A DNA stretch of 47,601 bases from a virus, in the IMG/VR virus record IMGVR_UViG_3300025313_000030, positions 1-47,601 of that record. The stretch is one strand, 5' to 3'. The position numbers and the translations under genes were made by a program. The notes beneath the pieces were generated by a model. That model was not told the DNA's origin. It was given only the letters and a program-made list of their open reading frames with translations, and did not search any database. Positions 11,127 through 43,354 of the stretch are shown here, one piece after another. The first letter of the stretch is position 1; every line of letters starts with the position of its first letter.

Positions 11127-11667
11127 CCGCTATAATACTCAACTTGCCCGCCAACTTCCGTATCTCCTCAGCCTCTAACTCGCCCCGAACATCTAAATTC
11201 GCGCTTACACTCGTACTCTTAGTCTCAATAAACCGCGTGTTCTTAAACTGACCCTTACTCATATTTATCATTAAGAACATCAAAAGAGCCTCAGAAGGCT
11301 CACGAACCCGCGTCCAACTCTCCTCCCCTACCTGAACCCGCTTACCCTCAATAATCCTAAAACTACGCCTGCTCTCCACGTACTCGTAACCCACCGCGCT
11401 GCGCATCGCCTGAGCTACTAAAAACTTCACCGTGCTCTCCTGAGCATCCGCTATCGCCGCAGCAAACTCAGGATGTTCACGCAACCAGTTTGCTACCGTA
11501 GTCTCACTAACACCTAAAACGTAACCCAACTCGCTCCGAGTGAACCCGCAAGCAGTTAACTTCGCCGCTACACCAGGAAAATGAACCCTGTCATATAACG
11601 CCGAACTTCGATGAGCCCGCCGATTGTTTAACTTGCCATCTACCTGCAATATCTTGGGAAAATTCAC
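11029..11667 (-). CDS. terS: Terminase small subunit
   Basis: 212 residues. Residues about 38-72 form a helix-turn-helix of the terminase type (FTRSELGYVLGVSETTVANWLREHPEF), which would bind the packaging site. Helices for oligomer formation follow (PSEALLMFLMINMSKG). The C-terminal 60 residues are acidic and polar. The gene lies directly upstream of and overlapping the large subunit, as is standard. Recognition of the pac/cos site by this protein is inferred from the family. Confidence 0.82.
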   Translation of the reverse strand: MNFPKILQVDGKLNNRRAHRSSALYDRVHFPGVAAKLTACGFTRSELGYVLGVSETTVANWLREHPEFAAAIADAQESTVKFLVAQAMRSAVGYEYVESRRSFRIIEGKRVQVGEESWTRVREPSEALLMFLMINMSKGQFKNTRFIETKSTSVSANLDVRGELEAEEIRKLAGKLSIIADDRERVGSTIQNRDSGGVLVEDTEGAEREPAI

Positions 11668-17023: not shown

Positions 17024-17815
17024 CTACGGATTCCGTAATGGGCTTTCTCCTTTCAAAAATCCTTTGACTATTGCGACTTGGTTTGCCGCCGCCTGCCTAT
17101 ACTCCTTGCCGTACTTGGCAAGCATTTCCCTGCGAATATCAGAGAATCGCAAATCGGGCAAACCCACCAATTCCCGCAACGCCTGCTTACGGGCCTCGTA
17201 ATCTTGAATGCGACGGAATATCACCGCTATCTCGTCAATCGCACAAACTCGGTTCCCGCCCAGAGCAACCGCAGTTGCGTCCAGAGCGGCCTCGACCCGT
17301 TCGATATTGACTATTCGACTATTCGTGCGCGGATCGTACCAAGTCGCGTTTGCAATATCCGGCTCTCTACCCTTTGGACTGTGGCCGTAAGGAAAAGGCA
17401 GGCTCGGCGTAAACTTGTCATTAGCCCAGGCGGGTAAGACGTTGTGCCGAGAGAACTTGCCTGTCCATCCATTATGAAAATATGGGTCTTGAACGACACT
17501 ATGAAGGGCGATGCCGAGAGCGATAAGGTCTTGAGCCATATAATGCCGCCAAGTTTGCGGCTTCGATACCGCTACAGAAGCTATTATCCGCTTGCACAAT
17601 TCCGAGTCAGGACGGCATATCAAGTCTTTCGGATTTGACGGCACAAAGTGAAAATATAAACCAAGATTGCTCCAAATCACATTCCGCCAAGTTACTTGTA
17701 AACTTTTATCCGTTTCGGTATTGCTCCACGCCAATAACAGAGCATCCTCATCTGAATAACCTGCGGCTTTGGCAATCGCGAGTGTGCCGTATGCGTGTAT
17801 ATCCTTTTGAGCCAT
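17024..17815 (-). CDS. DUF6765-like / zinc-dependent phospholipase C-like protein
   Basis: 263 residues. It begins MAQKDIHAYGTLAIAKAAGYS, continues DALLLAWSNTETDK, then HFVP, then ALGIALHSVVQDPYFHNGWTGKFSRHN. The order of H, D, W and HxxxDxxxH-like residues recalls the DUF6765/zinc phospholipase-like fold (IDxH start, HS..QDxxxH). If active it would hydrolyse a phosphoester or act as a metal-binding lysis or host-interaction enzyme. I cannot confirm all metal ligands. A short fragment with the same KAAGYSDxDA motif lies upstream at 18427-18546, split from it by an HNH gene. Confidence 0.55.
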   Translation of the reverse strand: MAQKDIHAYGTLAIAKAAGYSDEDALLLAWSNTETDKSLQVTWRNVIWSNLGLYFHFVPSNPKDLICRPDSELCKRIIASVAVSKPQTWRHYMAQDLIALGIALHSVVQDPYFHNGWTGKFSRHNVLPAWANDKFTPSLPFPYGHSPKGREPDIANATWYDPRTNSRIVNIERVEAALDATAVALGGNRVCAIDEIAVIFRRIQDYEARKQALRELVGLPDLRFSDIRREMLAKYGKEYRQAAANQVAIVKGFLKGESPLRNP

Positions 17816-17827
17816 AGGGATAACTCC

Positions 17828-18301
17828 TTAAAAGTTTGTACGGGCGAATCCACGAAAATATGCTATTGCCGCCGCATCGTATATTTGGGCCCCTTCTTCT
17901 TCGCTCTTGTAATAACCTAAAAACATTGCTTTGTTGTTGACACAAATCTTGACATGCCATTTTTGCTCTCTTTTGCACCAATTCACGCCCTTGAATTTTG
18001 AAGACTTTCCCCGTGCTTTCCGTTGATTTGCCATATTCTGTGCGTGAGTTGCCATACGCAGGTTATCACGGCAATTATTCAACCCATCACCATCTTTATG
18101 GTCAGTCTCTTTCCCTTGTGGCGGCCTTAAAATTTCTCGGTGCATCCGAATCAATTTGCGTTTCTCATTTTGGCGAACGTCTCGGACAGCATAATAAGCA
18201 TTACCATGTTTTCTTGCGTGCCATTTCCATTGCGATAACCACTGATAATCTTCATCATCGACGATTGCAAACTGACCTTGCGTAAGAGGTATGAGTTTCA
18301 T
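17828..18301 (-). CDS. HNH homing endonuclease with AP2 DNA-binding domain
   Basis: 157 residues from ATG at 18301. The N-terminal part (LTQGQFAIVDDEDYQWLSQWKWHA..) is the usual start of phage HNH-AP2 proteins. HREIL, ETDHKDGDGLNNCRDNLR gives the HNH core with DH as catalytic pair. Residues 105-157 (SSKFKGVNWCKREQKWHVKI...AIAYFRGFARTNF) are a full AP2 domain. Freestanding homing enzymes of this type cut allelic sites and spread. It separates two pieces with a KAAGYSD motif. The 120 bp upstream are unusually structured (18323-18417). Confidence 0.85.
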   Translation of the reverse strand: MKLIPLTQGQFAIVDDEDYQWLSQWKWHARKHGNAYYAVRDVRQNEKRKLIRMHREILRPPQGKETDHKDGDGLNNCRDNLRMATHAQNMANQRKARGKSSKFKGVNWCKREQKWHVKICVNNKAMFLGYYKSEEEGAQIYDAAAIAYFRGFARTNF

Positions 18302-18322
18302 CTTGCAACACCTTAAAAGCGA

Positions 18323-18417
18323 ACCGACCGGCAAGCGGCTGAACACCCGTAAGGATATTTCGCCTGCGCGGTCGGTGTCGTTTCTAAAGATTGTTCGAGT
18401 GTTCAGCATATTAGAAA
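18323..18417 (-). ncRNA. Interleaved-stem structured leader upstream of the HNH-AP2 gene
   Basis: Three perfect or near-perfect stems are interleaved. Stem a: ACCGACCG 18323-18330 with CGGTCGGT 18369-18376. Stem b: GCTGAACACCCG 18338-18349 with CGAGTGTTCAGC 18396-18407 (12 pairs, one G-U). Stem c: TTTCTAA 18381-18387 with TTAGAAA 18411-18417. The order a-b-a'-c-b'-c' cannot form as simple hairpins, so it is a pseudoknotted fold or a set of alternative folds. No group I intron core sequences were recognised. Confidence 0.5.
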
Positions 18418-18426
18418 TCATAATCT

Positions 18427-23225: not shown

Positions 23226-23937
23226 GGCGATCTTCTCCTGTTACCCGAATAATCTCACCTTGTTTGAGACGGCTTGTAATGCGCTCATCGAAAGCCTTAG
23301 TCAATTCACTCGGCGGTTTGTTCCCGGTTATGAAAGTCGCCTTCCATTCTTCGCTGCGTTCATCTAAAATCACCAGCAAAGTACGTAAACTGAAATCCGA
23401 TTCTTGCTTGCCTGGTGAAATAGCGACACTTACATCTTCGAGAATCAACTTGTCGCACTCAATATAAGGTTCAATCACTTCCCAAGTTGACCGTCCACTA
23501 TCGGGCCGAAACGTATCTCGGATTATCAAACACAATTTCTCAAACGAAATCTTCTTGACCACAAAACCATCATAAATAAATGTTCGCCCCAGGGCCGCTA
23601 AAGCGTATGTTTTCCCAACACCAGTTTTGCCCCATAAGTACACTCCCTTATCTGCCGCACCGATGAGTTGCTTCCACAATCCCTCACTAATCTGCTCAGG
23701 CAAAGCCGCCGTATATCGAGGCCGTACTATCTCAGAAATAAATGCTTCTTGTTGTTCCAACGGAAGTTTAGCAAAGAACTCCTTGCGGTGGCAAACATCG
23801 CAAGTCTTGTAGATTGAGACAATCTGCTTGCGCTTAATCCCACAGACAGGACAATCTTCACGCTCGTATTTCGATACTACCTGGTTCATTTTCGTAGTCG
23901 AAGCCAGTATTTGACCGAGTTTTTGTGGTTCGGCCAT
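23218..23937 (-). CDS. DnaC-like helicase loader
   Basis: 239 residues. Cysteine pairs CPVC and CDVC (29/32 and 46/49) form an N-terminal zinc knuckle. AAA+ part: Walker A GKTGVGKT (103-110), Walker B KLILEDV (163-169), later TGN (sensor 1) and ITSRLKQG (arginine-finger-like). DnaC/DnaI/IstB-type proteins load the host replicative helicase. The gene overlaps the end of the initiator by 80 nt in another frame, a common phage O-P-like pairing. Confidence 0.85.
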   Translation of the reverse strand: MAEPQKLGQILASTTKMNQVVSKYEREDCPVCGIKRKQIVSIYKTCDVCHRKEFFAKLPLEQQEAFISEIVRPRYTAALPEQISEGLWKQLIGAADKGVYLWGKTGVGKTYALAALGRTFIYDGFVVKKISFEKLCLIIRDTFRPDSGRSTWEVIEPYIECDKLILEDVSVAISPGKQESDFSLRTLLVILDERSEEWKATFITGNKPPSELTKAFDERITSRLKQGEIIRVTGEDRRA

Positions 23938-24580
23938 TATTTTTGCTCCAAACGGCTATAATTTTCTGCTTCCAATTCTTCACGGGCTTGAGGTCCCGAT
24001 CCCGCCATACACCGTCGGCGGCGGAAGAATAATACTTGATAAATTCGGCGGCATCGACTTGGTAATGATTCTCCGCGCAATAAGCCTTAACTTCTTCAAG
24101 AGTCGGAGGCACAAAGGGCGAAGCCCGTTTTTTCTTTTTGTTCTCATTATTAGTCATTGTTCCATTGTTATTATTGTTGTTTGTGGTTAGTTGCTGGTTA
24201 GTTGCTGGTTGCTCGCTGGTTAGCCGTTGGTTAGTTGGTTGGTTAGTTACTTGGTTAGATTTATCATCGTAGTCTTGGTAAGTCTTGTAATTACAAATAC
24301 TTATGAGGCTATAAATGTTGGTTGTCTGGATGGTTATTTCGCCGGTTGATTTTAGCCTATCGAGGCAAGTGCGTAAGGACTGGCGCGAGATACCCGTTTG
24401 CACTTTTAGGCTTGTTTGGCTTGTAACCAGTTGGCCTTGTTCTACGACGATTCCCTGCCATTTTTTCGGCTTGTGGTTCGCCCTACGGATTAGATGTTGA
24501 AACAAGTGTGCCATATTGGAAGTCGTGTACCATTCCCACTCCTCTATCTGCCGCCAGTTACAAACCCATCCGCCCGTCAT
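23858..24580 (-). CDS. Replication initiator protein (winged-helix N-terminus)
   Basis: 240 residues. Residues about 40-95 form a winged helix (GQLVTSQTSLKVQTGISRQSLRTCLDRLKSTGEITI), the usual DNA-binding start of phage initiators. A Asn/Gln/Thr linker (NQVTNQPTNQ...NNNNNN) follows, then a C-terminal helical domain with PPTLEEVKAYC.E and WKQKIIAVW. Its linker DNA is an iteron-like array (24185-24258), as in lambda O, whose gene holds the origin. The downstream loader gene supports lambda O/P-type initiation. Confidence 0.75.
   Translation of the reverse strand: MTGGWVCNWRQIEEWEWYTTSNMAHLFQHLIRRANHKPKKWQGIVVEQGQLVTSQTSLKVQTGISRQSLRTCLDRLKSTGEITIQTTNIYSLISICNYKTYQDYDDKSNQVTNQPTNQRLTSEQPATNQQLTTNNNNNNGTMTNNENKKKKRASPFVPPTLEEVKAYCAENHYQVDAAEFIKYYSSAADGVWRDRDLKPVKNWKQKIIAVWSKNNGRTTKTRSNTGFDYENEPGSIEIRA
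24185..24258. repeat. Iteron-like array inside the initiator gene (candidate origin)
   Basis: Six copies of GGTTAG lie at 24185, 24196, 24218, 24229, 24241 and 24253, spaced 11-12 bp apart (one 22-bp gap that holds a GGTTGC variant). They encode the polar linker of the initiator. Regular spacing near one helical turn fits initiator-binding iterons. Confidence 0.6.
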
Positions 24581-25085: not shown

Positions 25086-28000
25086 CTATTTCTCCGCTCT
25101 TTCAAACGCAAGATTCGTCGCCTTTCGATAGTCGGCAAGCCATTTTCTTTGCAATTCCCTGGCCGCTCTTCGCGTTTTGAGATCGAACTGGGCTAAGAAC
25201 TTATCCACGTCCTTATCGGCGAGACCGGCAAACGGGGCGTACTGGTTACGCGACCTTTCAATGGAAGTCCTTAATTCGCTGCGCTTCTTTTCCGGGTTGT
25301 CTTTAATATGTTCGGCCAAGTAGTTTGCCGCGTCGCTAATATCGCCCACCGTTACCTGCCGTGCCGCGTATTCGTAGGGCAGAATGGACGGGTACGAAGG
25401 CCGGCCTAGCAAGACCTTGCGAAGGTATTGGCTGATTTTGCCGCCCATGGGCGTCTTTTTGTTCTTGTCTTGAAAATCAAAAGACCTGTCCCGTAGGCGC
25501 TGATACTCAAAATACTTGTTATTACCGTTTATGAACCAGGCATCGGCCCGATTCATTAGGCCGGAAACATCTTTGAGCATTACCACTTCCCGCCGAGCCA
25601 GTTTCCTTGTGGCCGTTGCCGGATGTCCCGCAAATGACTCCGCCAGCCAACTGGCTGTGTTTCGTCCGGTACCTACGACTACGCCACCGATAGTTGTTCC
25701 TATTCCATAGCCTAAATCACCAATAATGCCAATGCCCGTACCGTCTAAAATATCGTTGCCTACCGCCAGTGTCAAGTCTTTTGCGTTGCGCTTTTCCTCT
25801 CTGGTTATCATTTGCATAGTGATAGAGTTATCCCCGCCCCGAACAAGGTCTCTGAGCAGATTCCATAGCTCGCCGATCAGGGCACTGCGTATTAAAAACT
25901 GCAATAGCGGGGCCAACGTGCCCTTCAGAGCCTGTAAAATCGCTTCTCGCCAGACTAAACGGGTCTGGTTCACGGCGTAATACTTGAACTTGGTAGCTAC
26001 GCGAAACACCGGATTGCCGTAAGGAATCGGCCTGGTCGCCAGAGTCATTGGGAATTGGGTGTCGGTAACAAGCCTATAGGCAAACTGCTGAACTTCGTCA
26101 AGAGTAGGCGCTCTGCCGCGCACAAACTCGTTCAACTGCTCGTCTGTAATGGGATTTACGAGCGTTCTATTCTTCAATAAGTCCGTCAAGTACGCTTCCG
26201 GTCTAACGGATAATAGCTTCAAGTGGACGAGTATCTTGTCTAATGTACTGCCTTTGCGCAGTGCGGCAAGTCGCTGGACGTTGGTCTTGAACCGGACAAT
26301 ACCGCTAATGCCCGCCGTTTTCTGACTCCAATGCTCCGCGCCCAAAAACGGAATCATTCCTTTGGGCAAGTCTTTACCGCCCAATAATTCGCCGAGTTCT
26401 TTCGCGTGCGACATTGCGCCCGACTGGCGGACTATTTCTGAAATCCGCTTGCCTTCCTTTGTAATTTCAAGAGCGTGTAAAAAGGAGCGCAGACTGTCGC
26501 TTGGCGAGACCATAAAGGTATTTCCAAATCCCTGAAAGCCGTTGCGTATGGCGGAGATGGTTGCGCCGCTCAGTTTTAGCCGCGTTAGTCCGTTGCTTAG
26601 GTAATCGAGGGCCATTTCCACGCCGCTTGGAATAGCGTTGGACTGGCCAAAAGTCGTACTTATCCAATTTTCGACGGACTTTGCATCGCCGGAGCCGTAC
26701 TTAGTCTTTATAGCGCCCAGTAGCGGCCAGACTCTATCAAAGTTGAACGGCCCTTGATGCTCCGCCGCCGCAATTTCCTGCTCACTACCGAATAGTACGC
26801 CGGAGGTTGGCGGCTGGCCTTCGTAAAGAACGCCCCACTCCTGGGCGGCGGCTATCATCTTGGCGTTTGTGCCAAGTATCTTGGGCAGAATAATATCAGG
26901 ATCGAACTCGACCATATAATCAGGCAGTAATACCCTTGTACTTTCGAGGTTGCCGTCAACGCCCCTCAGTGCTCCATTCACGTGGGACATTTCCCGATGC
27001 TTTATCATTTTATCGAGGGCGTCTTGAGTGTCTTTGGCCGAACCCATTCCGACCATATCTTCCGCCGCTTTCGCCACCTGGGGATGGCCCAGCCCCTTTT
27101 GGCGCGCCCAATACAGGATGTGCCTACCCTTCTGGTTGGGTATTTGGCCCATCCACCTACTTGTTCTGGTAAGCGTTTTGTAAGTGCCGCCCACTTTACG
27201 TTTGATACCGGCCTTGTTTGCAACGTCTATATCCTCGTCGTAAATAAGTCGGACGGCGTCCGAGATTCGCATAACCTTTTCGGGCACTTTGGAGCGGGAA
27301 ATCCGACCTTGTGCCTCTTTTACGAGGAGAATCTTCTGAGCTTTAGTCAGCTTTTTAAGACCGGCGTCCTTATTGATTCTGCGAAGCTGCGTAGCCTCTC
27401 TGGTATCGGCGTTCCTGGCTATACTCCTTATGCTTCGGGCAAGCTGCTCGCCTTCCGGTATCTTGTACTGTTTCTCGACGTAATCCGCCGCGCCGTATAT
27501 TGCGTACCGAACCGCGCCCGGCAGTCCTTTGGCAACGTCTTTCACTCTTGTAAGTGAATCCAGCACCTCCTCAACTTGGGGCGGGATTATGACCATACCC
27601 TTATTGTGATTATAGGGCAATTCAGGATTATCGGCCTGGTTTTTAAGGTCTTGCTCCGATTCGCTATTGGTTATGACGGTCTTTTCGTCCGGTGTTATCT
27701 CCTTCCCCTCTGGCGCAGGGGCGGGCTTAACTTGCTCTACTGAAAATTGCGTCCGGCCTGCTGATGACGTGATTTTTTTCTCTAAGGCTTTCCGCGCGGC
27801 TTCGCGCGACGAATAGGTAGTTTTCCCGACTTGATTTCCGCGACTATTGAGGATTTGCCATACTTCTACCTTCCCCGCAGTTTTATCCCCTGGGAACGGG
27901 GCGGGCTTCGGCGAATATATCAATCCCTCTTTTTCCCCAAGCGTTTGAACTACTGCCTGCGTCATTTCAGGCGTCAAGGGTATTACATCTATGATTTTAT

Positions 28001-30890
28001 CGGCAGAAATCGCCTTTGATTTGTATGCTTTTCCACGCCCCATTTGTATTTGAGCATTGACATCTTGTTCTAATTGCACTCCGGTCGAATTGATTCTAAC
28101 AATACTGGTATTTTCACCCACATCATATTCCATCTTTGCTGCCCAACGAACAGCATCGTCATAGTTTTCAAAGGTATAAATCGTGCCAGGCTGTACCAAT
28201 TTCTTTCCAAATTGGCCCTTGTAGGTTGCTTTTTGTTTTCCCGCTATGATGCCTTCCTGTTGAATATCTTTGACCCTTGAAGTTAGAGTAACGTGATACA
28301 ACACCTTCTTCGCAGCTTTATCCCCTGGGGACGGAGCGGGCTTCTGTATAAGAGATTGCCCACCTATTTTTTTCTTGACGTTTTCGTGGATTTGTTCGGC
28401 GAGAAGTGCAGTCTCTTCCAGCGCTTTAATTTTGCCTTGCTGCGTTAAAGCAGATAATGGCCCTATTATACCCTCAGCATCCACACCTTCTTGCTCTGCC
28501 AAATGCCGGAATAATGCCGTTGCAAGTTTCTTTTTGGTTTCGTTTTCGTTTCCAAGGGCAGAGTCGATATTTTCTTGAGTCAGAATATCGGGCATACCTA
28601 TTTCTATCCCGTAAGCCTCTCGTATGATTCTGCGGAGCGGATAGAATGTTAGCGTGTCGTCGGTTATATTTTTGTTTGCAAGAACATCCGAAACTGTTTT
28701 ATACGCCTTTGATGTTATTCCTTCATCGGATGGTTCCACCTTCTTCGCAGCTTTATCCCCTGGGGACGGGGCGGGTCGGGCTACTGTCTCGCCCTGGGGG
28801 GTAGTTACGGTCGGGGCGGGCTTGGCAGTTGCTTTCAATGGCCAATCTGGGCGGCTCTTTGCGTGTTCGATAATCAATTCAGTAGCGTGTCTCGATTGTT
28901 TATCGCCGCCATAAAGTCCTGATGTGGCGTCCCTATATTCGCCAACGGCTTTATCTATGTCCTGAGTACGCAGATATTCGTCAATAGCGGCTCGGTTGCG
29001 CACGCCTTGCTGTTGTAACCAGTTGTTAAATGATTTGCTTTCTACGGGAATCTGAGGGGTTGTTGCCTGGCTAACGGTTGTAGGGCTTGGGCCTTTTTTG
29101 CCGCCCTTAATCCATTCTGATATGGCTTGATTATGCCGCCGTATCGCTTCCTGCTGTTCAGGGGCAAGTTTAATAGGAGTAGGCTTTACGGGTGTAGGGG
29201 GCGCAATCTTGGCCGTAACCCTACCCTGGCCCGGTTCCGGGGGAGTTCGAGGCTCCTGCGCAATCCTGGTGCGTTTTTTCGCTATGCCGGCGCGCTCCTG
29301 AGCCGTCGCCGGACTGATTCTGGCGGCCTCTGCGCCTGGGACGCCCTCTTGCCTCAACGTTTGGCCGATAGGCGGCGGCCCGGCCTTTTGGGTTTTCGCC
29401 GCTCCCCTGGAGTATCGCCCCTCTTGGATTTCCTGGGCTGCCGAGAGGTCCCCCTGGCTTATTCGGTCAAGCAGGTCTTCATAGGTAGGCAACGCCGCGC
29501 CTTGCTGTTGGATGGCGTTTAGTTTGTCGATGGCGTCCTGTTCGCCTTCGCTCGCCCGCTCCAAGAGTAGGTCGTATTGCATCCGCTCGTAGTTTGCCTG
29601 GTTTATCTCGCCGGCCAAGTCCTTCATCGTGCCTGGTTGCGGCTGTGCGACATCGGTTGCGGGGCCTGCCTTGCGTCGATAGTTCGCCAGCAACTTCGCG
29701 CCGGTGATAGAGGGGTCCATAATCCCGCCCAGCATCGTTCCCATAACGGCTGAATCAGCGAGACGCTTTGCCACGGCATCATAATCGACCGAACCATCGG
29801 CCTTTTGGGGCACATCGCCGCCCGCAACTATCTGCACAAGTTCTTGAGGCAACTCCTCAGCCAGACCTTCTTTTAGGGCGTTTGTGAGGGCGTGCCTGCC
29901 GAATTGCTTTGCCTTCTGCATCTTGGTAAGCGTGGCGGCGATTGCCCTATTCTTAAAATACTTGCCGCCCCCGCCCCCGGCTATTTCTATCCCGCCATTT
30001 ATCATTCCAACGACTGCGCCGCGAATCCGGGCCTCTCGTTCACTTGCTCCTCTATCGAGGGCGGTTTGATACGCCGTATTTCCTTCTACCCCGTAAGAAA
30101 CGAGAAAGCTGCCAAGCGCCGAAGGCAAGGTCGCCCCGCCCGTCATAGCAGCAGGGGCCATCGCCGCCAACATAAATGGGGCGGTTTCAACGGCACTGCC
30201 GAAGTATCTATCCACCAGGGTCTCTTCCAGGGCCGCATATTCGGGGGCCTTCTGCTGAACGTCCCAGAACATTCTCGCCCAATCGTCCGCCGACTTGCCG
30301 TATTTCCCGCCGCTTGCCGCCCGCGACACGTCTCCGGCAAGGTGGGCAAGTCCGCCCGCCAACTGGAGCTTGCCCCGCTCCCATCTTTTTCCCGTTTTCG
30401 TCCAGAATTTGCCCGTCTGCTTTTCGAGTTCCGCTTGATAGACTTCCATATCATAGCGGCCCTGAATTTCGTCAACCAATTCTCCAGTCCGCTCCTTCTG
30501 ACGCTGAAGGGTGCGGGCGTCAATGGCATTTTTCTTCAATTCAGGGGGTAGATTAGCCTGATGCTCCATCCAGTTGATGTCGGCAAGGAATTGAGTCTGT
30601 CCGCTTCGTTTCGGCGGCGGTATGTCGAACCCGCTCGGATCAGCGAATAACTCCGGCTGGCTGTAGGCATAAGGTACTCCAAGCGGCTCCGCCGCCACTT
30701 CCCTTTTCTGCTCCTCAATAGCCTGGCGTTCTCCCGCCATCGCTTGAAGCATATTGGGGCGCGGTTGCAAATCCGAGACAAAGCCTTTTCTTTCACTGAT
30801 AAGATCATCGAGAGATAATGGCGTCTCTTCCGACGACTCGGTGGGGGCTTGTTGATATTTGGCTATCAATTCATCGAGTGTTGCGGGCAT
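25086..30890 (-). CDS. Giant polyvalent / ejection protein with ADP-ribosyltransferase-like domain
   Basis: 1934 residues. Residues 1-450: Gly/Ala-rich, hydrophobic, polyvalent-protein-like (PAAMTGGATLPSALGSFLVSYGVEGN). Residues 450-700: Pro/Lys linkers. Residues 704-1008: three recurrences of KPAPxPGDKxAxKVx as joining linkers. Residues 864-994: VLYHVTLTSRVKDIQQEGIIAG...IYTFENYDDAVRWAAK...AYKSKAISADKIIDVIP, an ADP-ribosyltransferase-like (ART) domain with its LYHxT start. Residues about 1008-1060: small KTTYSSREAARKALEKKI domain. The remainder is large polyvalent-associated domain and helical end. Such proteins enter the host with the DNA. The ART could modify a host target, though its catalytic residues are not proven here. 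Confidence 0.75.
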   Translation of the reverse strand: MPATLDELIAKYQQAPTESSEETPLSLDDLISERKGFVSDLQPRPNMLQAMAGERQAIEEQKREVAAEPLGVPYAYSQPELFADPSGFDIPPPKRSGQTQFLADINWMEHQANLPPELKKNAIDARTLQRQKERTGELVDEIQGRYDMEVYQAELEKQTGKFWTKTGKRWERGKLQLAGGLAHLAGDVSRAASGGKYGKSADDWARMFWDVQQKAPEYAALEETLVDRYFGSAVETAPFMLAAMAPAAMTGGATLPSALGSFLVSYGVEGNTAYQTALDRGASEREARIRGAVVGMINGGIEIAGGGGGKYFKNRAIAATLTKMQKAKQFGRHALTNALKEGLAEELPQELVQIVAGGDVPQKADGSVDYDAVAKRLADSAVMGTMLGGIMDPSITGAKLLANYRRKAGPATDVAQPQPGTMKDLAGEINQANYERMQYDLLLERASEGEQDAIDKLNAIQQQGAALPTYEDLLDRISQGDLSAAQEIQEGRYSRGAAKTQKAGPPPIGQTLRQEGVPGAEAARISPATAQERAGIAKKRTRIAQEPRTPPEPGQGRVTAKIAPPTPVKPTPIKLAPEQQEAIRRHNQAISEWIKGGKKGPSPTTVSQATTPQIPVESKSFNNWLQQQGVRNRAAIDEYLRTQDIDKAVGEYRDATSGLYGGDKQSRHATELIIEHAKSRPDWPLKATAKPAPTVTTPQGETVARPAPSPGDKAAKKVEPSDEGITSKAYKTVSDVLANKNITDDTLTFYPLRRIIREAYGIEIGMPDILTQENIDSALGNENETKKKLATALFRHLAEQEGVDAEGIIGPLSALTQQGKIKALEETALLAEQIHENVKKKIGGQSLIQKPAPSPGDKAAKKVLYHVTLTSRVKDIQQEGIIAGKQKATYKGQFGKKLVQPGTIYTFENYDDAVRWAAKMEYDVGENTSIVRINSTGVQLEQDVNAQIQMGRGKAYKSKAISADKIIDVIPLTPEMTQAVVQTLGEKEGLIYSPKPAPFPGDKTAGKVEVWQILNSRGNQVGKTTYSSREAARKALEKKITSSAGRTQFSVEQVKPAPAPEGKEITPDEKTVITNSESEQDLKNQADNPELPYNHNKGMVIIPPQVEEVLDSLTRVKDVAKGLPGAVRYAIYGAADYVEKQYKIPEGEQLARSIRSIARNADTREATQLRRINKDAGLKKLTKAQKILLVKEAQGRISRSKVPEKVMRISDAVRLIYDEDIDVANKAGIKRKVGGTYKTLTRTSRWMGQIPNQKGRHILYWARQKGLGHPQVAKAAEDMVGMGSAKDTQDALDKMIKHREMSHVNGALRGVDGNLESTRVLLPDYMVEFDPDIILPKILGTNAKMIAAAQEWGVLYEGQPPTSGVLFGSEQEIAAAEHQGPFNFDRVWPLLGAIKTKYGSGDAKSVENWISTTFGQSNAIPSGVEMALDYLSNGLTRLKLSGATISAIRNGFQGFGNTFMVSPSDSLRSFLHALEITKEGKRISEIVRQSGAMSHAKELGELLGGKDLPKGMIPFLGAEHWSQKTAGISGIVRFKTNVQRLAALRKGSTLDKILVHLKLLSVRPEAYLTDLLKNRTLVNPITDEQLNEFVRGRAPTLDEVQQFAYRLVTDTQFPMTLATRPIPYGNPVFRVATKFKYYAVNQTRLVWREAILQALKGTLAPLLQFLIRSALIGELWNLLRDLVRGGDNSITMQMITREEKRNAKDLTLAVGNDILDGTGIGIIGDLGYGIGTTIGGVVVGTGRNTASWLAESFAGHPATATRKLARREVVMLKDVSGLMNRADAWFINGNNKYFEYQRLRDRSFDFQDKNKKTPMGGKISQYLRKVLLGRPSYPSILPYEYAARQVTVGDISDAANYLAEHIKDNPEKKRSELRTSIERSRNQYAPFAGLADKDVDKFLAQFDLKTRRAARELQRKWLADYRKATNLAFERAEK
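27868..28781. repeat. Three-copy 44-bp linker repeat in the polyvalent gene
   Basis: Near-identical 44-bp units at 27868-27911, 28302-28345 and 28738-28781 each encode PAPxPGDKxAxKV. They flank the ART-like domain and two other modules, as joints for domain insertion. Confidence 0.85.
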
Positions 30891-30894
30891 TTTC

Positions 30895-32046
30895 CTACTT
30901 CAATAAATACGGTTGCAGGTCGGGTGAGGTCATCAACTTTTCCATAGGCACGCCAACTGAAATTGCCTGACGAATCTTAGCTTGAATGTGAGGCGGTAGG
31001 CCGGGGAACATTTGAAATAGGCCGGTTGCGGCGTCCGGGCCAGCAGCCCCCTGCCCGCCTCCTCCCGTAGCAGGTGCGTTTACGTCGCTCACACCCGCTC
31101 CTGTTGGCGGGCCGAATCTCTCATTTATCCACTCTTCAGTTTCATCCGCCAATTCGCCCGCCGTTACGCCAAGCTGGGATAAATTCAGGTTTGCCTGGTA
31201 CGCCGCCGTGGCTGCGGGTATGTTCCGGCCACGCAGTTCATTAAATTTGGCCAATTTCTCCTCGTTAGTTCCCTGCCCGGTTTGCCTATGTACGGACGCA
31301 GGCACACCTGCTATCCAATCGGCATCTTGTGGCGTTTTCCCGCTCCTCTGCAATTGTTCTGAATAGGCAAGGGCGACCTCTCTGTCAATTTCACTTCGTA
31401 CCGTTCCGGGAAATTCATAATTCAATTCCCGCATTTTTAGGTTGCGGGCCAATTCCTCAGCTTGTCTTGAGTTAATCTCTCCTACTCGCACTCTGCGAGC
31501 AACCTCTTTATCGATAAATCCCCATTGCTGCTGTATATTTGCGTACTTGCCTTTGAGTTTCATGTCATCTTCGGCAAATTTGGCGTATAGGGAATCGCGG
31601 AGAAAACTGGTTCTCCGGTCGTCCCAGCCCTCGGCTTTAGCACGGTCTAATAAGCCATTTTCTTTGTTAATCAAATCTTGCCGCTTTGACTCGTATTCTA
31701 CTTCCCACTGCCGCTCAAGTTCCTCCAATAGGTCGTTGGACGGGTCGTCTAACCTGGTCTTTATCTTCTTGTAAATGTCCGCCTGGCGCGCCGCGTTGCC
31801 GTAAAGTTCGGTTATTACGGGGTCTTGGGCGGTCTTGCCATATTTGAACCGTCCGTAGTTTTGGGCGGAGCGAAGCGGTATGTAAGTACCCTCCGGGGTC
31901 ATAATCATATCTTCACCCGGTTTCGGAGCAGACGTTAGAAACGTTCCCTCTTCCGGCACTTCCGTAGTTGTGCCAATTCCGTAAGGAATCTCTGGGGTGT
32001 AACGCATATCCGCGTCGCTTATCGCCGGTGTATTTGTAATGACCAT
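30895..32046 (-). CDS. Putative internal virion / ejection protein
   Basis: 383 residues. Mostly helical, rich in Glu, Arg, Gln and Ala, with long charged helices (LLEELERQWEVEYESKRQDLINKENGLLDRAK). C-terminal Gly/Pro region, then a short hydrophobic end (GLPPHIQAKIRQAISVGVPMEKL). It lies 4 bp before the giant polyvalent gene, typical of ejection-protein pairs in podoviruses. No enzymatic motif seen. Confidence 0.6.
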   Translation of the reverse strand: MVITNTPAISDADMRYTPEIPYGIGTTTEVPEEGTFLTSAPKPGEDMIMTPEGTYIPLRSAQNYGRFKYGKTAQDPVITELYGNAARQADIYKKIKTRLDDPSNDLLEELERQWEVEYESKRQDLINKENGLLDRAKAEGWDDRRTSFLRDSLYAKFAEDDMKLKGKYANIQQQWGFIDKEVARRVRVGEINSRQAEELARNLKMRELNYEFPGTVRSEIDREVALAYSEQLQRSGKTPQDADWIAGVPASVHRQTGQGTNEEKLAKFNELRGRNIPAATAAYQANLNLSQLGVTAGELADETEEWINERFGPPTGAGVSDVNAPATGGGGQGAAGPDAATGLFQMFPGLPPHIQAKIRQAISVGVPMEKLMTSPDLQPYLLK

Positions 32047-32053
32047 TTTTGCC

Positions 32054-33178
32054 TCAGCTTATTGCAATTATTATGCCTCTACTTACCGTTACCGTGCGTC
32101 CATCCTGGGCGGTGAACGTGATAGTCTGGCCCACGCCATCGTCGGTGAAGTACCCGCCCTGCGATTCCACGCCGCCCTTTACCAACAGCCCGTCGCTGCC
32201 GTCCCTCGTATGGTGCGGAGCGGCGGAGATGTTACTTACTATGTTTATTTGGTTCGCCTGCTTGTTAAGCCAAACGGAAATGTAAGCAATACCTGAAATT
32301 GTTCCAGTCAAATAATGAATTACGCCAGCTGCTTCCACTTCCGACAAATACCCAACACCATAAATGGTATCGCCGGTCAGGTATCGAGTTACTACAAAAA
32401 CAAGAGATGAAATTACCCCCTGTCCGGTAATGTTACCCGAAAAATATCTTTGAACTCCTGGCGAATAAGCGCTAACATAAGAAATGCCGGATATTGCCCC
32501 CGTAATATACATATCAGCTCTGGGCGAATCAGCACTAATGAAAGAAGTGCCCAATAATGTACCACTACAATATCGAGTTATTACCGGCGCAGCAGCAGAT
32601 ACGAAAGAAGCAGCAGAAACCGCTCCCGTCATATACTCATCGAGTCTCGGAGGAAACGCGCTAAGATAAGACACACCGGATATATTGCCTGTCGGATAAT
32701 AAGTTACACCACTGCCGAAAACGGTAAATAATAAACAACTATCACTTAATATGATCCACGAAGACCCGTAATTCGTGCTTCTTATATTCTTGTGTTCGGT
32801 TATATTTACCGTTTCATTCCGCCAAGCTAATGGAGTTGCGCTGCTGGTTGACGTAGTTTCACAAATACAACCATACAAACTACCGCTATCTAAAACGGCA
32901 GAATTTCCAAAATTAAAAGATTGCCAGGCCTGACTGGTTACCCAACCGGAAGCATCTACCGTAATAGCGGCAATGGCCGTGCCGGTTGGCCCTGCGGAAG
33001 TGCAATTGTAGATGTTGAAATTCAGGGTGGATAAACCCGGTGTGCGGGTGCAAAGTAATTGCGCCGAGGCTAAAGAATAATGTCCTTGCGACCGGAACAT
33101 TACGCCTATCCAACTGCTATTGTAAACAAATGCCGGGGCATCGTCTCCGGCGGTTAAAGATGCTATTATTGTCGGCAT
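32054..33178 (-). CDS. Tail fibre/receptor-binding-like protein with 21-residue repeats
   Basis: 374 residues. Residues 1-155: beta sandwich (LNFNIYNCTSAGP..., WQSFNFGNSAVLDSGSLYGCICE) like a carbohydrate-binding jelly roll. Residues 161-305: seven repeats of the type YxTGxISGxSYxSAxxPxxxR, starting at 161, 182, 203, 224, 245, 266 (period 21) and 289. C-terminal 70: predicted beta cap with TFTAQDGRTVTVSRG. Such repeats make elongated beta stalks. It lies between a conserved tail-fibre gene and ejection genes. Host receptor binding is inferred. Confidence 0.6.
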   Translation of the reverse strand: MPTIIASLTAGDDAPAFVYNSSWIGVMFRSQGHYSLASAQLLCTRTPGLSTLNFNIYNCTSAGPTGTAIAAITVDASGWVTSQAWQSFNFGNSAVLDSGSLYGCICETTSTSSATPLAWRNETVNITEHKNIRSTNYGSSWIILSDSCLLFTVFGSGVTYYPTGNISGVSYLSAFPPRLDEYMTGAVSAASFVSAAAPVITRYCSGTLLGTSFISADSPRADMYITGAISGISYVSAYSPGVQRYFSGNITGQGVISSLVFVVTRYLTGDTIYGVGYLSEVEAAGVIHYLTGTISGIAYISVWLNKQANQINIVSNISAAPHHTRDGSDGLLVKGGVESQGGYFTDDGVGQTITFTAQDGRTVTVSRGIIIAIS

Positions 33179-34806: not shown

Positions 34807-36960
34807 TTATTCTACTCTGCCCTTAACGGGCTTAACGTTAGCTACGAATTTTTCAAAACTCCACGTCTGATTCGACGCGATTGTCTGAGCCTTAATTGCT
34901 ATGTAATTGCCTCTAACCTTAGTATTTATCTTCGTCTTGCGGCCCGTGCCCGTAAAAGCTACTGAATTGAAAGCCGTTGCCCCGTCCTTAATATCTTCAA
35001 GAACAGTCTCCGCGTCGTTACCGCGATAAAAATTCAACTGGCAGCCGTCGGTATCGTCAAATGCCCCGCCGGAAGCGCCGCCGGCAAGGGTAACGAACCC
35101 GCCGATCATCCTACCTTCAAGTTCAGGGTCTTGGTTCATAGGCATCGGGCCTAACGTAACGTAGGCGCTAATCGCCGCGTCCGTCGCACCGTCGTCATCG
35201 ACTTTAGCAGTATCGTCGAAAGAGCGAATATACCCGTCCGCACACCCGAACAATAATTTCCGGTAAGCATCGTCGTCCGCGTTATAGAACATCATACTAA
35301 TCGGGGCGCAGTTTGCCGGATAGGACTCAGGAAATATCCCGCCCGTGCGCAAGTCGAGCCAGTAAGCGGAATTGGTGTTGTCCACAACCTTAGTAATGCA
35401 GACTAAGATTCCGTGCCGAATACGGTCGTAGCCCATTGTAATTCTGTGCTGAGTAGGGTCGATAGTCTCGTCGTCTATCAGTTTGGGAATACTCTTAGCG
35501 GTAAGGTTTTCGACCGTGCCCCAATCCTCGCCGCCGGTGGAGAGTTTGTATATCCCGCCCGAACCGAACCAATAGATATTATCCTCAGCGTCCCAGCAGA
35601 AACTCTTAGGCCCAAAAATACCCGTTGATAGAGTTATCGGGTCAAGCGAGCCGCCTTCGGCGGGATCGCCCCGAATAACCCACATAGAATTAGCGCAACC
35701 AACAATAAGGAAATCGTCCTTGCGGGGAATCAAAGCCAGAATAATATCGCCTACCTTACCCACGTCGGCGTCATTGCCCGCAATGGGACTCTGAGAATCG
35801 GCGGAGACGTAATTCCAGTCGAAGGGATTGCCCTGCCTGCTCATATACCACTGGTGCGGGTCGTAAGGCGTACCCGCTAAGACCATCCGTCCCCGGTACA
35901 AACAGCCAAGCGTCGGCTTCGTGGGAAAAGTCCCGAAAGTCGCGCTCGCCCCGTAAACAGTCCAATCATAAAAGTGAGGAACGCTCGTAGCGGCCAGCGC
36001 AGAATTGAGTACAAACGATATTGCATTGCCGTCGTCGTCTGTGCCGGTTATCGTCTCTCCGTCCGTAAAGACCGCCGTATTCTGCGGGACTCCGTAAATC
36101 CGAGAGGTCGTAGCGCCTATATCCGTCGCGTAATCAACGACAATCGCCGCCCCGCTCGTTCCGCCGGTTAAAGCATTGCCAACATCGGGCGGATTCGCTC
36201 CTAACGCAGTTGTATAGCATCGAGTATTAACGAAGTCGATTATCTTCTGATTATCGCCATTGACTACGAAAACCTTCTGGTAAGCGCCAATAAGGTCAAT
36301 AGGAAGGTTTATATCAATAGCGCCCCGCGAAACTGTAATTTCAGCCATCGTTCCCGCAGGCGATTCCAGATAGATACTGCTATTCGCTGCGGCGACGAGC
36401 TTCGCGCTTCTCTTGCGGTCGTCGGGATAATTGTTTGTAAAAGTATTCGAGCCGATAGTAGCAGCCCATAACTCGAAGAAATAGTCGATATTACTATTGG
36501 CCAGAAAAGTACCGCTTGAAGTAACGGCATAAACAGAGCCGCCGTAATCATAAGTGGAATTTCCCGCTATCCCCGCTAATAACTCTTCGCCTGCGCCTAC
36601 CGATGAAGCAATCACAGTCGCTACATACTTAGTATTCCCCGCAAGTTGCACACCCGTAGCAAACGCAAAAGGTTGATAAGCCAAAGTCTGGCTCGTCGGC
36701 AGTCCACTAACATAAGCCGAATTAAAAGACGAGTCCAATAAAGCGTCCGGCAAGCCCGTTGATACTATCGCCGACCATAAATCAATTCGCAAATCGCCTT
36801 CGGCATTTGCGCTTCTTTGCAACTGAAACGCAAAAGACGAAATCATTGCCGGGAACAAGGGTGTGAAGGACATCCCATAATAGCCCCCAGACCCCCAGGT
36901 TGTCTGAGTTGCCGTGATTCCCGCTACCGTGCTGGTATATGATATGGCAGTAATTGTCAT
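34807..36960 (-). CDS. Tail nozzle-like protein (P22 gp10 / tail tubular B class), split N-terminus
   Basis: 717 residues. The body from about residue 180 reads as beta-propeller-like repeats (KRSAKLVAAANSSIYLESPAGTMAEITVSRG, FPTKPTLGCLYRGRMVLAG, GSGGIYKLSTGGEDW, GKVGDIILALIPRKDDFLIVGC), as in phage nozzle/tail-tube B proteins. Residues about 1-170 are instead a jelly-roll-type carbohydrate-binding domain (WGSGGYYGMSFTPLFPAMIS...IDLWSAI...YFFELWA). The usual nozzle N-terminus is encoded by a separate gene immediately upstream (36962-37189), one base away. It closes the tail and binds fibres. Confidence 0.7.
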   Translation of the reverse strand: MTITAISYTSTVAGITATQTTWGSGGYYGMSFTPLFPAMISSFAFQLQRSANAEGDLRIDLWSAIVSTGLPDALLDSSFNSAYVSGLPTSQTLAYQPFAFATGVQLAGNTKYVATVIASSVGAGEELLAGIAGNSTYDYGGSVYAVTSSGTFLANSNIDYFFELWAATIGSNTFTNNYPDDRKRSAKLVAAANSSIYLESPAGTMAEITVSRGAIDINLPIDLIGAYQKVFVVNGDNQKIIDFVNTRCYTTALGANPPDVGNALTGGTSGAAIVVDYATDIGATTSRIYGVPQNTAVFTDGETITGTDDDGNAISFVLNSALAATSVPHFYDWTVYGASATFGTFPTKPTLGCLYRGRMVLAGTPYDPHQWYMSRQGNPFDWNYVSADSQSPIAGNDADVGKVGDIILALIPRKDDFLIVGCANSMWVIRGDPAEGGSLDPITLSTGIFGPKSFCWDAEDNIYWFGSGGIYKLSTGGEDWGTVENLTAKSIPKLIDDETIDPTQHRITMGYDRIRHGILVCITKVVDNTNSAYWLDLRTGGIFPESYPANCAPISMMFYNADDDAYRKLLFGCADGYIRSFDDTAKVDDDGATDAAISAYVTLGPMPMNQDPELEGRMIGGFVTLAGGASGGAFDDTDGCQLNFYRGNDAETVLEDIKDGATAFNSVAFTGTGRKTKINTKVRGNYIAIKAQTIASNQTWSFEKFVANVKPVKGRVE

Positions 36961-38326: not shown

Positions 38327-39073
38327 TTAGAAGTCAACCATATTCACTTCATTTAACCTGTATTCGCGAGTTATATCAATTACCCCGCCCATATTCTCGT
38401 CGTTGTTATAGCCTAAATTATGCGCCCTCCGCTCGTTGTCCTTCATTACCGCCTGCATAAGCAGGCCACTGGCCTTCTTCTCGTGAACGGACTGGTCAGG
38501 CGCAAGCTCGTCCAATTCGGCTTCGGCCTGAGCGATTGCCAATTCTTTCAAAGCCTCCGAAACGTCCGGGCCGCCGATGTGCAAATCACTGTCGTTCACC
38601 ATCTTTGCGGGCCAAATCTCAGGAGAATAGTAAAGGGTATAAGCGGCATCAGGAGTAGGAAAGAACGTAACTATCCATTTCTGACCCGTTTCGGACGCGT
38701 GCTCGCCTGCAACAAGAGCAAAATAAGTCGGATAACCCGTAGTATCGGTAACGGCGCGAAACTCCTCTATCTGCTCATACATTCGCTCCCGCAGGGGCGG
38801 GTAGGCGTCGGCGGACGAGTACCTGAACGTGCTCTTTATCCGTACAAAGTCGGCGGGCAACTCATATTGCCACGTGCCGGACACCGTCGAAATCTGGCGG
38901 GTAGGCGTTAAGAAAGTCCAATTATGGCTAAGAAGAAGTCTTCGGTACGCCGCGTTTACCATATCCTTAGCGTCGGTAAGGTCCGTACCGGATACGCCGG
39001 ACGAGCCATACGTGCCGGCGTACTTTGAAACGGCGTTGTAAAGCTCCGAAAATGAAAGTTGCAAACTTGGCAT
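38327..39073 (-). CDS. Head-tail adaptor (P22 gp4 / tail tubular A-like)
   Basis: 248 residues. N-terminal helical bundle: FSELYNAVSKYAGTYG..., DLTDAKDMVNAAYRRLLLSHNWTF, with the pattern of phage adaptor proteins, then LPADFVRIKSTF and a middle beta part (WIVTFFPTPDAAYTLYYSPEIWPAKM). C-terminal helices (VSEALKELAIAQAEAELDELAPDQSVHEKKASGLLMQAVMKDNERR) would stick to the portal. First gene of the tail module after the sugar cassette. A hairpin lies upstream. Confidence 0.75.
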   Translation of the reverse strand: MPSLQLSFSELYNAVSKYAGTYGSSGVSGTDLTDAKDMVNAAYRRLLLSHNWTFLTPTRQISTVSGTWQYELPADFVRIKSTFRYSSADAYPPLRERMYEQIEEFRAVTDTTGYPTYFALVAGEHASETGQKWIVTFFPTPDAAYTLYYSPEIWPAKMVNDSDLHIGGPDVSEALKELAIAQAEAELDELAPDQSVHEKKASGLLMQAVMKDNERRAHNLGYNNDENMGGVIDITREYRLNEVNMVDF

Positions 39074-41292: not shown

Positions 41293-41707
41293 AACAGTAA
41301 AATCCTATCATCTCACCGTCCGCTCTTTTTGCACCGTCGAAAGCAAAACCTACCTTCTTATATAAACTCAGAGCCAACTCGTTCTTGGGGTCAACGTGCA
41401 GGCGCACGCGAGCCAGATTCCGTTCCTTGCCCGCCTGCAATAAGAACCGGCACGTCAACTCGCCATAACCCCGTCCCCGACATTCGGGGTGGACGAGAAG
41501 ACCCAGGCATTTATCGGGCCAATTCTCGTCCCATCCGCGAATCCACCCGTAGGCAATTACCGGATGCCCGTAGCCCAAAAGGATATAGTGCACGTCGCAC
41601 GTACCCTGCCGGTAAACCGGCGGGTTCTTCAAGAACCGTTCATTTTGCGCTTGACTGAAAAACGCCTTTAGCCTGGCCTTCGTCGGCCTTACTATTCCCC
41701 GCATCAT
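41285..41707 (-). CDS. GNAT-family N-acetyltransferase
   Basis: 140 residues. Motif A region CLGLLVHPECRGRGYGELTCRFLLQ contains the RxxGxG acetyl-CoA loop. A later LSLYKKVGFAFDGAKR is motif B. Strong SD (GGAGGG). In nonulosonic clusters such enzymes (PseH/LegH-like) acetylate the amino sugar before NeuB. That role is inferred from neighbours. It overlaps the radical-SAM stop by 68 nt. Confidence 0.75.
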   Translation of the reverse strand: MMRGIVRPTKARLKAFFSQAQNERFLKNPPVYRQGTCDVHYILLGYGHPVIAYGWIRGWDENWPDKCLGLLVHPECRGRGYGELTCRFLLQAGKERNLARVRLHVDPKNELALSLYKKVGFAFDGAKRADGEMIGFYCYE

Positions 41708-42614
41708 AACAGTTCCCTCCGCATAGCCTATACTTATTCCACCGGCCAGCCGCTAAATCGGCTCGTATTTCCCTTAACTCCGGGCCGAAATCCCAGATAT
41801 TCTTGAGACTGCTCTTGGCCAAATCACCGACCACCATCTCGTTATCATAGTCCGCACAGCAGGCAACTACCGTCCCGTCCCAGTTGATAGACATTTTATC
41901 AAAGATTTCAGGACAGTTTTCCGCCATCGAGCAAGGGTCGAATCCAATTTTCTTTGTTCGGCTAATTTCAACTTTGTCGGCGATTTTTTCAGCAAAATGC
42001 CGAAACTCCGCCACTTCATTTGCTGTACTTTCATCGGTTATCGTACTCCCTATCTGTATGAACGGCATCCTGAACGCTCCCCTTTTTTTGTATATTTCAC
42101 CGACAGTCTCAAACAACTTCTCGAAATTATCCTCTCCTCGCCACTTTTTGTACTGCTCAGCAGTAACACCCTGAAAGGAAAACTTGATAGTCGATGGGCC
42201 GTATCTCAAGTGGATTATCCGGTCAATGGCCTCGTCGTCGATTAGCGTCCCGTTGGTATTTATCCAGACGGGCACGTTCACTTGCCGCGCCAGTTTACAG
42301 AAGGCCAGGCACTGCGGATGTATGAATGGCTCCCCCCACCGAACAAACCGCAAAGCCGCACCGTACTTGGCAGCCTCCTTGAGAATCAACCCAAACAAAT
42401 TGGCGGACATCAATCCTTTCGGCCTCTTGACTATGCCCTGCCCAGTCGGGCACATAGCACAATGAAGATTACACTGATTAGTCAATTCAATATCTATCAG
42501 GCGAGGGAAGTCTATTGGATTCGCCAGCTTGTCCGCCATTGTGCCGGAATTGCACTTGCGATAAATGCCGGCAAAACTGCTTAACTTGCCAGCCTCTTTA
42601 GCAATCTTTTGCAT
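41640..42614 (-). CDS. Radical-SAM/SPASM domain protein
   Basis: 324 residues from ATG at 42614 (GTG at 42623 possible). CNLHCAMC is the CX3CX2C cluster motif binding the radical-SAM 4Fe-4S, RFVRWGEPFIHPQ supports the SAM site, and C-terminal CSMAENC...CCADYDNE...CGGNC forms SPASM-type clusters. Relatives occur in LPS/capsule clusters and modify sugars or peptides. It lies between NeuA-like and GNAT genes and overlaps both. Confidence 0.8.
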   Translation of the reverse strand: MQKIAKEAGKLSSFAGIYRKCNSGTMADKLANPIDFPRLIDIELTNQCNLHCAMCPTGQGIVKRPKGLMSANLFGLILKEAAKYGAALRFVRWGEPFIHPQCLAFCKLARQVNVPVWINTNGTLIDDEAIDRIIHLRYGPSTIKFSFQGVTAEQYKKWRGEDNFEKLFETVGEIYKKRGAFRMPFIQIGSTITDESTANEVAEFRHFAEKIADKVEISRTKKIGFDPCSMAENCPEIFDKMSINWDGTVVACCADYDNEMVVGDLAKSSLKNIWDFGPELREIRADLAAGRWNKYRLCGGNCYDAGNSKADEGQAKGVFQSSAK

Positions 42615-43354
42615 ATTTCCCACCTCGAAAGTCTATGTTTGCCCGCCGCCCGGAATCGGGCCTCGGCAACGTCCCAATCCCATTTGGTATCAATGTCAAT
42701 ATCATCGTGCTCATCACAGATATAGGCGTAAACGTTCGTTTTCCAATAGTCTTTGCGGTTCACCCAGACATCCCACTTGGCAAGGTAGATGTACCCGTTT
42801 ATCCGGTACGCGGGCGGTAAGTCCTGCCTGTTCTTGTCCTTAAACTGCTTAGGATACCAACCCTTCAAACATAAATCATTCGGCAGCTCCTTGACTACTA
42901 TCGTCGGGTCTTTATACTTGTGAACCCCGACAACCATATCGGCGTTTCTATCTTTCCAATTCTCAAACGGCGGCTGGCCCTGAATCATTCTCGCCGCACC
43001 CTGTATCTGTGCGGGTCTTAGCCCAGGACTCGTAGCCTGAATCAACTGAACGTAATCATACTTTTCGCCGAGCCTAAGCAGTGAATTCACCATAACGTCC
43101 GCCACCAGCGACGTGTCCGAAGCCAATTCAGCAGGTCGCGGCTGAACGTCCGCGCCGCACTTAGCGGCCACGGCCAGTATCTTATCGGAATCACTGTTGA
43201 CTATTATCCGGTCGAATACGCCGCTATCTTTTGCGGCCTCGATAGACCACTGAATTAGCGGCTTGCCGCAAAAGTCCTTAACGTTCTTGTTCGGGATTCC
43301 CTTGCTGCCGCCCCTGGCCGGTATCACCGCCAGAAAACTCTTGCCCCCGCGCAT
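42581..43354 (-). CDS. NeuA-like CMP-nonulosonic acid cytidylyltransferase
   Basis: 257 residues. FLAVIPARGGSKGIPNKN (8-24) is the signature nucleotide-binding loop, QATSPGLRPAQIQGAARMI and DIDIDTKWDWDVAEA are further family segments. It activates the nonulosonic acid with CTP for transfer by a glycosyltransferase. Length is near the family norm (about 230-250 residues). It overlaps the GT2 gene by 77 nt and the radical-SAM gene, so the three are translated together. Confidence 0.9.
   Translation of the reverse strand: MRGGKSFLAVIPARGGSKGIPNKNVKDFCGKPLIQWSIEAAKDSGVFDRIIVNSDSDKILAVAAKCGADVQPRPAELASDTSLVADVMVNSLLRLGEKYDYVQLIQATSPGLRPAQIQGAARMIQGQPPFENWKDRNADMVVGVHKYKDPTIVVKELPNDLCLKGWYPKQFKDKNRQDLPPAYRINGYIYLAKWDVWVNRKDYWKTNVYAYICDEHDDIDIDTKWDWDVAEARFRAAGKHRLSRWEICKRLLKRLAS

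What the first reader, a model, noticed from the sequence alone, without database searches (positions are those of the whole stretch)
25086..30890. Modular polyvalent ejection protein with ART-like domain joined by repeated linkers
Three nearly identical 44-bp linkers (PAPxPGDKxAxKV) bracket an ADP-ribosyltransferase-like domain (residues 864-994) and two other modules. It looks like a cassette system where payload domains are swapped into a virion-carried protein. The ART could be an injected effector against host proteins or nucleic acid.
Basis: partly seen in the sequence, partly recalled or inferred. Interest (0 to 1): 0.75.

Follow-up and report, generated by a model that had tools for sequence, protein, structure and literature searches.

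The report
Phage-virion protein with swapped-in ADP-ribosyltransferase module
An uncultured tailed phage encodes a very large protein at the end of its structural genes, into which a foreign-looking enzyme-type module (ADP-ribosyltransferase fold) has been spliced between near-identical linkers; the module belongs to a phage family that the reference libraries used here do not hold, but this copy has lost residues that nearly all its relatives keep, so it may have a changed or lost activity.

Summary
Observation confirmed: ORF 25086-30890(-), 1934 aa, has three 39-nt linkers (PAPxPGDKxAxKV, residues 706-718, 851-863, 996-1008). Copies 1 and 2 share 38/39 bases; the longest exact repeat is 33 nt against at most 15 in codon shuffles. 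The two modules between them have GC3 of 0.38-0.39, below every other gene tested in the window (0.43-0.68), while the linkers are GC-rich. That is what foreign payloads between duplicated linkers would look like.

Residues 864-995 do have an ART fold. An AlphaFold model (pLDDT 81) matches Tpt1/KptA best (E 2e-6), then DarT, PltA and cholera toxin. The module belongs to a phage family (31 other domain sequences from IMG/VR) that was not found in Pfam, PHROGs, sequenced phages or GTDB genomes. Members are solo or embedded in several unrelated large proteins. P0001 shares only this module with them, so swapping is supported. In some relatives it adjoins head-protease genes; here it ends the structural operon.

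The catalytic claim is weak. The window copy keeps strand-1 His866 and Thr868 but lost N, W, RYG, W and DP, which nearly all relatives keep. It is the most divergent member, and no catalytic Glu is evident. Injection and enzymatic activity are inferred.

The parts
25086..30890 (-). 1934-aa multidomain protein (P0001), last gene of the tail/late operon; putative ejection (internal virion) protein
   Evidence: ORF; no Pfam, PHROG or NCBIfam family above threshold; follows tail and adaptor genes on the same strand
28737..28775 (-). linker copy 1 (residues 706-718, PAPSPGDKAAKKV)
28341..28736 (-). module 1 (residues 719-850), unknown, atypically AT-rich (GC3 0.39)
28302..28340 (-). linker copy 2 (residues 851-863, PAPSPGDKAAKKV)
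27906..28301 (-). ART-fold module (residues 864-995; His866, Thr868, Tyr905, Trp916, Asp943, Gly953), GC3 0.38
   Evidence: family HMM built without it: E=3e-17; AlphaFold pLDDT 80.8; Foldseek Tpt1 E=1.9e-6
27867..27905 (-). linker copy 3 (residues 996-1008, PAPFPGDKTAGKV)
27726..27866 (-). module 3 (residues 1009-1055), unknown; only a sub-threshold Pfam match (Terminase_6N 7e-4, on a GNQVGKTT string), probably chance
27702..27725 (-). degenerate fourth linker (PAPAPEGK, residues 1056-1063)
   Evidence: the repeat finder family D2
30895..32046 (-). 383-aa late gene, 4 bp upstream of P0001
   Evidence: no family
32054..33178 (-). 374-aa late gene, same operon
   Evidence: no family
34807..36960 (-). 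tail/tail-appendage protein
   Evidence: phrog_376 tail protein E=6.5e-5
38327..39073 (-). SU10-type adaptor protein
   Evidence: PF24175 E=4e-16
23858..24580 (-). DnaD-like helicase loader, next gene downstream (start of the replication block)
   Evidence: phrog_2514 E=3e-28

Best explanation
P0001 is a large multidomain protein at the 3' end of the phage's structural operon and is most likely a virion-carried ejection protein of the polyvalent kind. Between its N-terminal part and its C-terminal body, two payload modules of foreign base composition have been inserted, flanked by copies of the protein's own PAPxPGDKxAxKV linker. One payload is a member of a phage ART-fold family that no searched library describes. 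Inferred mechanism: linker copies act as flexible joints and as short homologies at which payloads are gained or exchanged. The protein enters the host with the phage DNA, and the ART module binds NAD+ or an ADP-ribose-type ligand through the strand-1 YHxT motif to act on a host macromolecule early in infection. Shown here: fold, family membership, duplicated linkers, foreign composition, module mobility among proteins, operon position. Inferred: injection, ligand, reaction, target, exchange at linkers. Because this copy lost residues invariant in its relatives, it may have shifted specificity or lost catalysis.
For: A family HMM built without the window row finds P0001 at E=3e-17. The AlphaFold model (pLDDT 80.8, pTM 0.78) has Tpt1/KptA as its 17 best PDB matches (1.9e-6 to 1e-3), then DarT1, PltA, DarTG and cholera toxin. 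A family model built without the window sequence also matches Tpt1 first (5.8e-5), then cholera toxin and DarT. The profile's best PDB sequence matches are Tpt1 at the YHxT strand, below significance. GC3 is 0.39 and 0.38 in modules 1 and ART against about 0.58-0.60 in the large flanking parts of the protein and 0.43-0.68 in other genes of the window. P0001 and the other large proteins share only this domain. In L025 and L028 the large ART-bearing gene lies beside a head maturation protease gene. In the window, TerS, major head protein, adaptor and tail genes are on the same strand and P0001 follows the tail genes. ARTs in packaged polyvalent proteins are an established theme (PMC5512222, PMC9503650).
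Against: No direct evidence of packaging. No catalytic E/D/Q of the H-Y-[EDQ] type is recognisable by alignment. The window copy lacks the N, W, RYG, W and DP positions (30/31 or 31/31 in relatives for N, W, R, Y, W and the D) and has the longest branch of the family tree. The loop that carried several of them is the low-confidence part of the model. Structure similarity to any single ART is moderate (TMq about 0.5-0.6). Near-identical linkers were seen in this phage only, with one loosely similar case in L038.
Confidence: 0.6

Rival explanations
1. The window's ART module is a catalytically dead or repurposed fold: a binding or spacer module in the ejection protein that no longer transfers ADP-ribose.
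For: Loss of positions present in all or nearly all of 31 related sequences, and the longest branch in the tree; low-confidence loop at residues 30-36 of the model.
Against: His866, Thr868, an aromatic on strand 2 (Tyr905), Trp916, Asp943 and Gly953 are kept; the fold is still recovered; ART active sites vary widely among clades (PMC9503650).
Confidence: 0.4
2. The module is an active nucleic-acid-directed enzyme like Tpt1/KptA or DarT: injected to remove 2'-phosphates from damaged RNA or to ADP-ribosylate nucleic acid, rather than to modify host proteins.
For: Tpt1/KptA are the best matches by profile and by structure for both models, DarT among the next.
Against: A module of about 130 aa leaves no room for Tpt1's N-terminal lobe; no recognisable Tpt1 active-site set was identified; Foldseek rank within the ART superfamily does not establish substrate.
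Confidence: 0.2
3. The protein is not packaged; it is a large intracellular effector encoded between the tail and replication genes.
For: No structural homologue was found for P0001; the next gene downstream is a helicase loader.
Against: It is contiguous (4-7 bp gaps) with late genes on the same strand; some relatives lie beside head genes; weak hydrophobic stretches at 237-255, 1649-1672 and 1720-1740 would suit a channel-forming ejection protein (interpretation from general knowledge).
Confidence: 0.15

Closest known systems
Polyvalent proteins with ART domains (Iyer et al. 2017, PMC5512222; Pfam ART-PolyVal PF18760)
   Same: ART-fold domain in a very large multidomain phage protein encoded among virion genes
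   Different: Not the PF18760 family (no match in any of 21 members at E<=5); has repeated near-identical linkers; no aligned H-Y-D triad
Tpt1/KptA RNA 2'-phosphotransferase (PF01885)
   Same: Closest fold and shared strand-1 YHxT...I...G motif
   Different: Below Pfam threshold (best 0.072); no N-terminal lobe; 11-21% identity
DarT / DarTG
   Same: ART fold among the next-best matches
   Different: No antitoxin recognised among the genes scanned; catalytic Glu of DarT not recognisable
Phage T4 Alt
   Same: Works like: head-packaged, injected ART (literature, PMC9503650)
   Different: Alt is of the R-S-E clade; the window module is YHxT-type; packaging not shown here

Membership tests
ART superfamily (fold) | ART fold | tested here: met
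   AlphaFold models plus Foldseek: nearly all leading PDB matches are ARTs
ART superfamily (fold) | strand-1 His of the H-Y-[EDQ] or H-H-h clades | tested here: met
   YHVT, His866/Thr868; His 30/31 in relatives
H-Y-[EDQ] ART clade | Tyr in strand 2 | tested here: inconclusive
   GTIYTF in the window, mostly GEIFAF in relatives; assigned by motif and DSSP, not by coordinates
H-Y-[EDQ] ART clade | E/D/Q in strand 5 | tested here: inconclusive
   By motif the position falls on the invariant Gly (Gly953), but no structural superposition could be inspected
Phage ART-like family found here | profile match over the full domain | tested here: met
   E=3e-17 with the window row left out
Phage ART-like family found here | conserved N-W, R-Y-G, W and D-P positions | tested here: not met
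   window A888 T889 K897 L898 V899 L940 A946 Q947; the window copy is a divergent member by profile
ART-PolyVal PF18760 | Pfam match | tested here: not met
   no match for any of 21 members at E<=5; the whole-window search also found none but its controls did not ring
Tpt1/KptA PF01885 | Pfam match above cut-off | tested here: not met
   best E 0.072, below cut-off
Polyvalent virion proteins | several unrelated domains in one phage protein | tested here: inconclusive
   only the ART module could be identified; modules 1 and 3 are unknown
Polyvalent virion proteins | encoded among virion genes | tested here: met
Polyvalent virion proteins | packaged and injected | not testable with these tools
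   needs virion proteomics or a translocation assay

The most novel reading that the evidence does not exclude
An undescribed ART family, found here only in uncultured phages, travels as a payload between unrelated virion proteins, and in this phage payloads are exchanged by recombination at duplicated linker DNA inside one gene, giving an evolvable injected-effector cassette.
Probability: 0.35. Interest if true: 0.75.

Novelty: new variant of a known kind. Interest (0 to 1): 0.52.

Why it matters
If right, it adds an ART family to the arsenal phages may deliver with their DNA, one that the annotation libraries searched here miss, and gives a concrete case (near-identical linkers around compositionally foreign modules) in which payload acquisition by a virion protein can be tested. 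The family alignment also gives clear residues (His, N-W, R-Y-G, W, D) to mutate.

Tried and rejected
Homology between module 1 and the ART module, suggested by their equal 132-aa length: not found. A general linker shared among phages: zero IMG/VR matches to PGDK[AT]A[KG]KV. Relatives of the whole protein: only one near-identical fragment, L002, covering residues 1-180; none in INPHARED or PLSDB; none from the C-terminal part. Direct search with the window's module found nothing; only the WAAKM[DE][YW] DNA motif reached the family. Family in GTDB genomes: none from the alignment scan and zero matches to a motif pattern that hits 21 of the loci then held and 26 IMG/VR stretches. Terminase_6N on module 3 (7e-4, below cut-off) was judged a chance match to a Walker-like string. 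Repeats around the ART in relatives: only L038 shows a pair (QKYNENQPREP / AKYDKNQPRDP) flanking it.

Full report
Observation. The 1934-aa ORF at 25086-30890(-) is real. Three 39-nt linkers encode PAPxPGDKxAxKV at residues 706-718, 851-863 and 996-1008. Copies 1 and 2 differ at one of 39 bases. The longest exact repeat is 33 nt, while 200 codon shuffles gave at most 15. The spacing of exactly 435 nt twice is not due to homologous modules.

Composition. Modules 1 and ART have GC 0.43 and 0.41 and GC3 0.39 and 0.38. The N-terminal and Pro-rich parts have GC3 0.58-0.60, the C-terminal body 0.58 and the linkers 0.62-0.69. No other gene of the window that was tested falls below GC3 0.43. The linkers therefore resemble the host protein and the two payloads do not. 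This fits acquisition of the payloads from elsewhere together with linker duplication. It is inference from composition, not an observed exchange.

Family. No Pfam, PHROG or NCBIfam model matches the protein convincingly. A DNA search of IMG/VR for the peptide WAAKM[DE][YW] found phage genes with the same module, extended by an alignment search, further patterns and HMM scanning to 31 distinct domain sequences apart from the window's, some nearly identical and one truncated. An HMM built without the window row scores P0001 at E=3e-17 over the whole domain. The members tested are not in Pfam, four domains tested are not in PHROGs, and no significant match was found in 50,697 phage records with four different queries (one search gave only an E=3 match). 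A genome contigs alignment scan found no relative and a motif pattern gave zero matches in 257 Gb of GTDB genomes, although the same pattern matches 21 of the 46 loci then held. Divergent forms can be missed by such patterns.

Architecture. Members are solo genes of about 143-230 aa or parts of proteins of 787-2572 aa. The large proteins L022, L028, L029, L033, L025, L023 and L031 share parts with each other, in changing order and spacing (for example L022 245-300 matches L029 504-559, on the other side of the ART). L038, L039, L041 and L044 share essentially only the ART region with them. P0001 shares nothing else with any of them. Solo and embedded members are interspersed in the tree, though many deep nodes are weakly supported. 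The module has therefore most likely moved between proteins repeatedly. In L025 and L028 the large gene is next to a head maturation protease gene, and in L044 a downstream gene matches nudix, portal and head-protease families.

Fold. The model of the window domain has pLDDT 80.8 and pTM 0.78. Its 17 PDB matches at E<=0.001 are all Tpt1/KptA, best 1.9e-6, followed by DarT1, PltA, DarTG, TreX, Arr and cholera toxin. Viral matches include a protein annotated as DarT and a putative RNA 2'-phosphotransferase. A second model, from relatives without the window sequence (pLDDT 84.2), gives Tpt1 first and then cholera toxin and DarT. Profile searches independently put Tpt1 at the top, at sub-threshold E-values, through the YHxT strand. 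The ART fold is well supported.

Catalysis. Kept in the window copy: His866, Thr868, Ile876, Gly880, Gly902, Asp912-Ala913, Trp916, Asp943 and Gly953. Lost: N and W (A888, T889), R-Y-G (K897, L898, V899), W (L940) and D-P (A946, Q947); N, W, R and Y are present in 30 of 31 relatives, W and the first D in 31 of 31. The loop that carried N-W and R-Y-G has the lowest confidence in the model, and the window copy has the longest branch. By motif, the third ART catalytic position seems to fall on an invariant Gly, so a classic catalytic Glu is not evident; this could not be checked on coordinates. Activity is open.

Context. On the minus strand the window holds a terminase small subunit (11029-11667) and major head protein (3371-4495), then, if the genome is circularly permuted, a block of radical-SAM, glycosyltransferase and PAPS-reductase-like genes, the SU10-type adaptor, tail protein and several late genes, and P0001 last, before the helicase loaders. 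This is the usual place of ejection proteins in short-tailed phages (general knowledge). The literature supports packaging of ART-bearing polyvalent proteins as a theme (PMC5512222; PMC9503650). Packaging of this protein is inferred.

Verdict. The cassette idea is supported by composition and by module sharing, but an exchange at the linkers is not shown. The injected active effector remains a hypothesis, weakened by loss of family-invariant residues.

Noticed in passing
window 41640-42623 and 44740-45651: Two radical-SAM genes (one rSAM/SPASM, Pfam E 1e-13; one weak, 2e-5) with a GT2 glycosyltransferase (43278-44177) and a PAPS-reductase-like gene (46321-47466, phrog_424 8e-5), apparently a metabolic or modification block between head and tail genes.
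   Followed up: no
window 17024-17815: DUF6765 protein (PF20551, E 3e-19) of unknown function in a phage.
   Followed up: no
window 17828-18421: HNH endonuclease with a weak AP2 match.
   Followed up: no
L043 5495-5944 and 5962-6402: Two tandem solo copies of the ART-like domain in one phage.
   Followed up: no
L039 4861-7734: 958-aa protein with the ART-like domain at 381-504 and a second stretch near 788-852 matching RNA 2'-phosphotransferase (phrog_5470, 0.0016) and the first strand of the family.
   Followed up: no
L031 3316-7197: ART-like domain in one protein with a weak C-terminal ParB-like match.
   Followed up: no
L038 5371-7731: Direct repeats of 33 nt (QKYNENQPREP / AKYDKNQPRDP) flank the ART-like domain in an unrelated protein.
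   Followed up: partly
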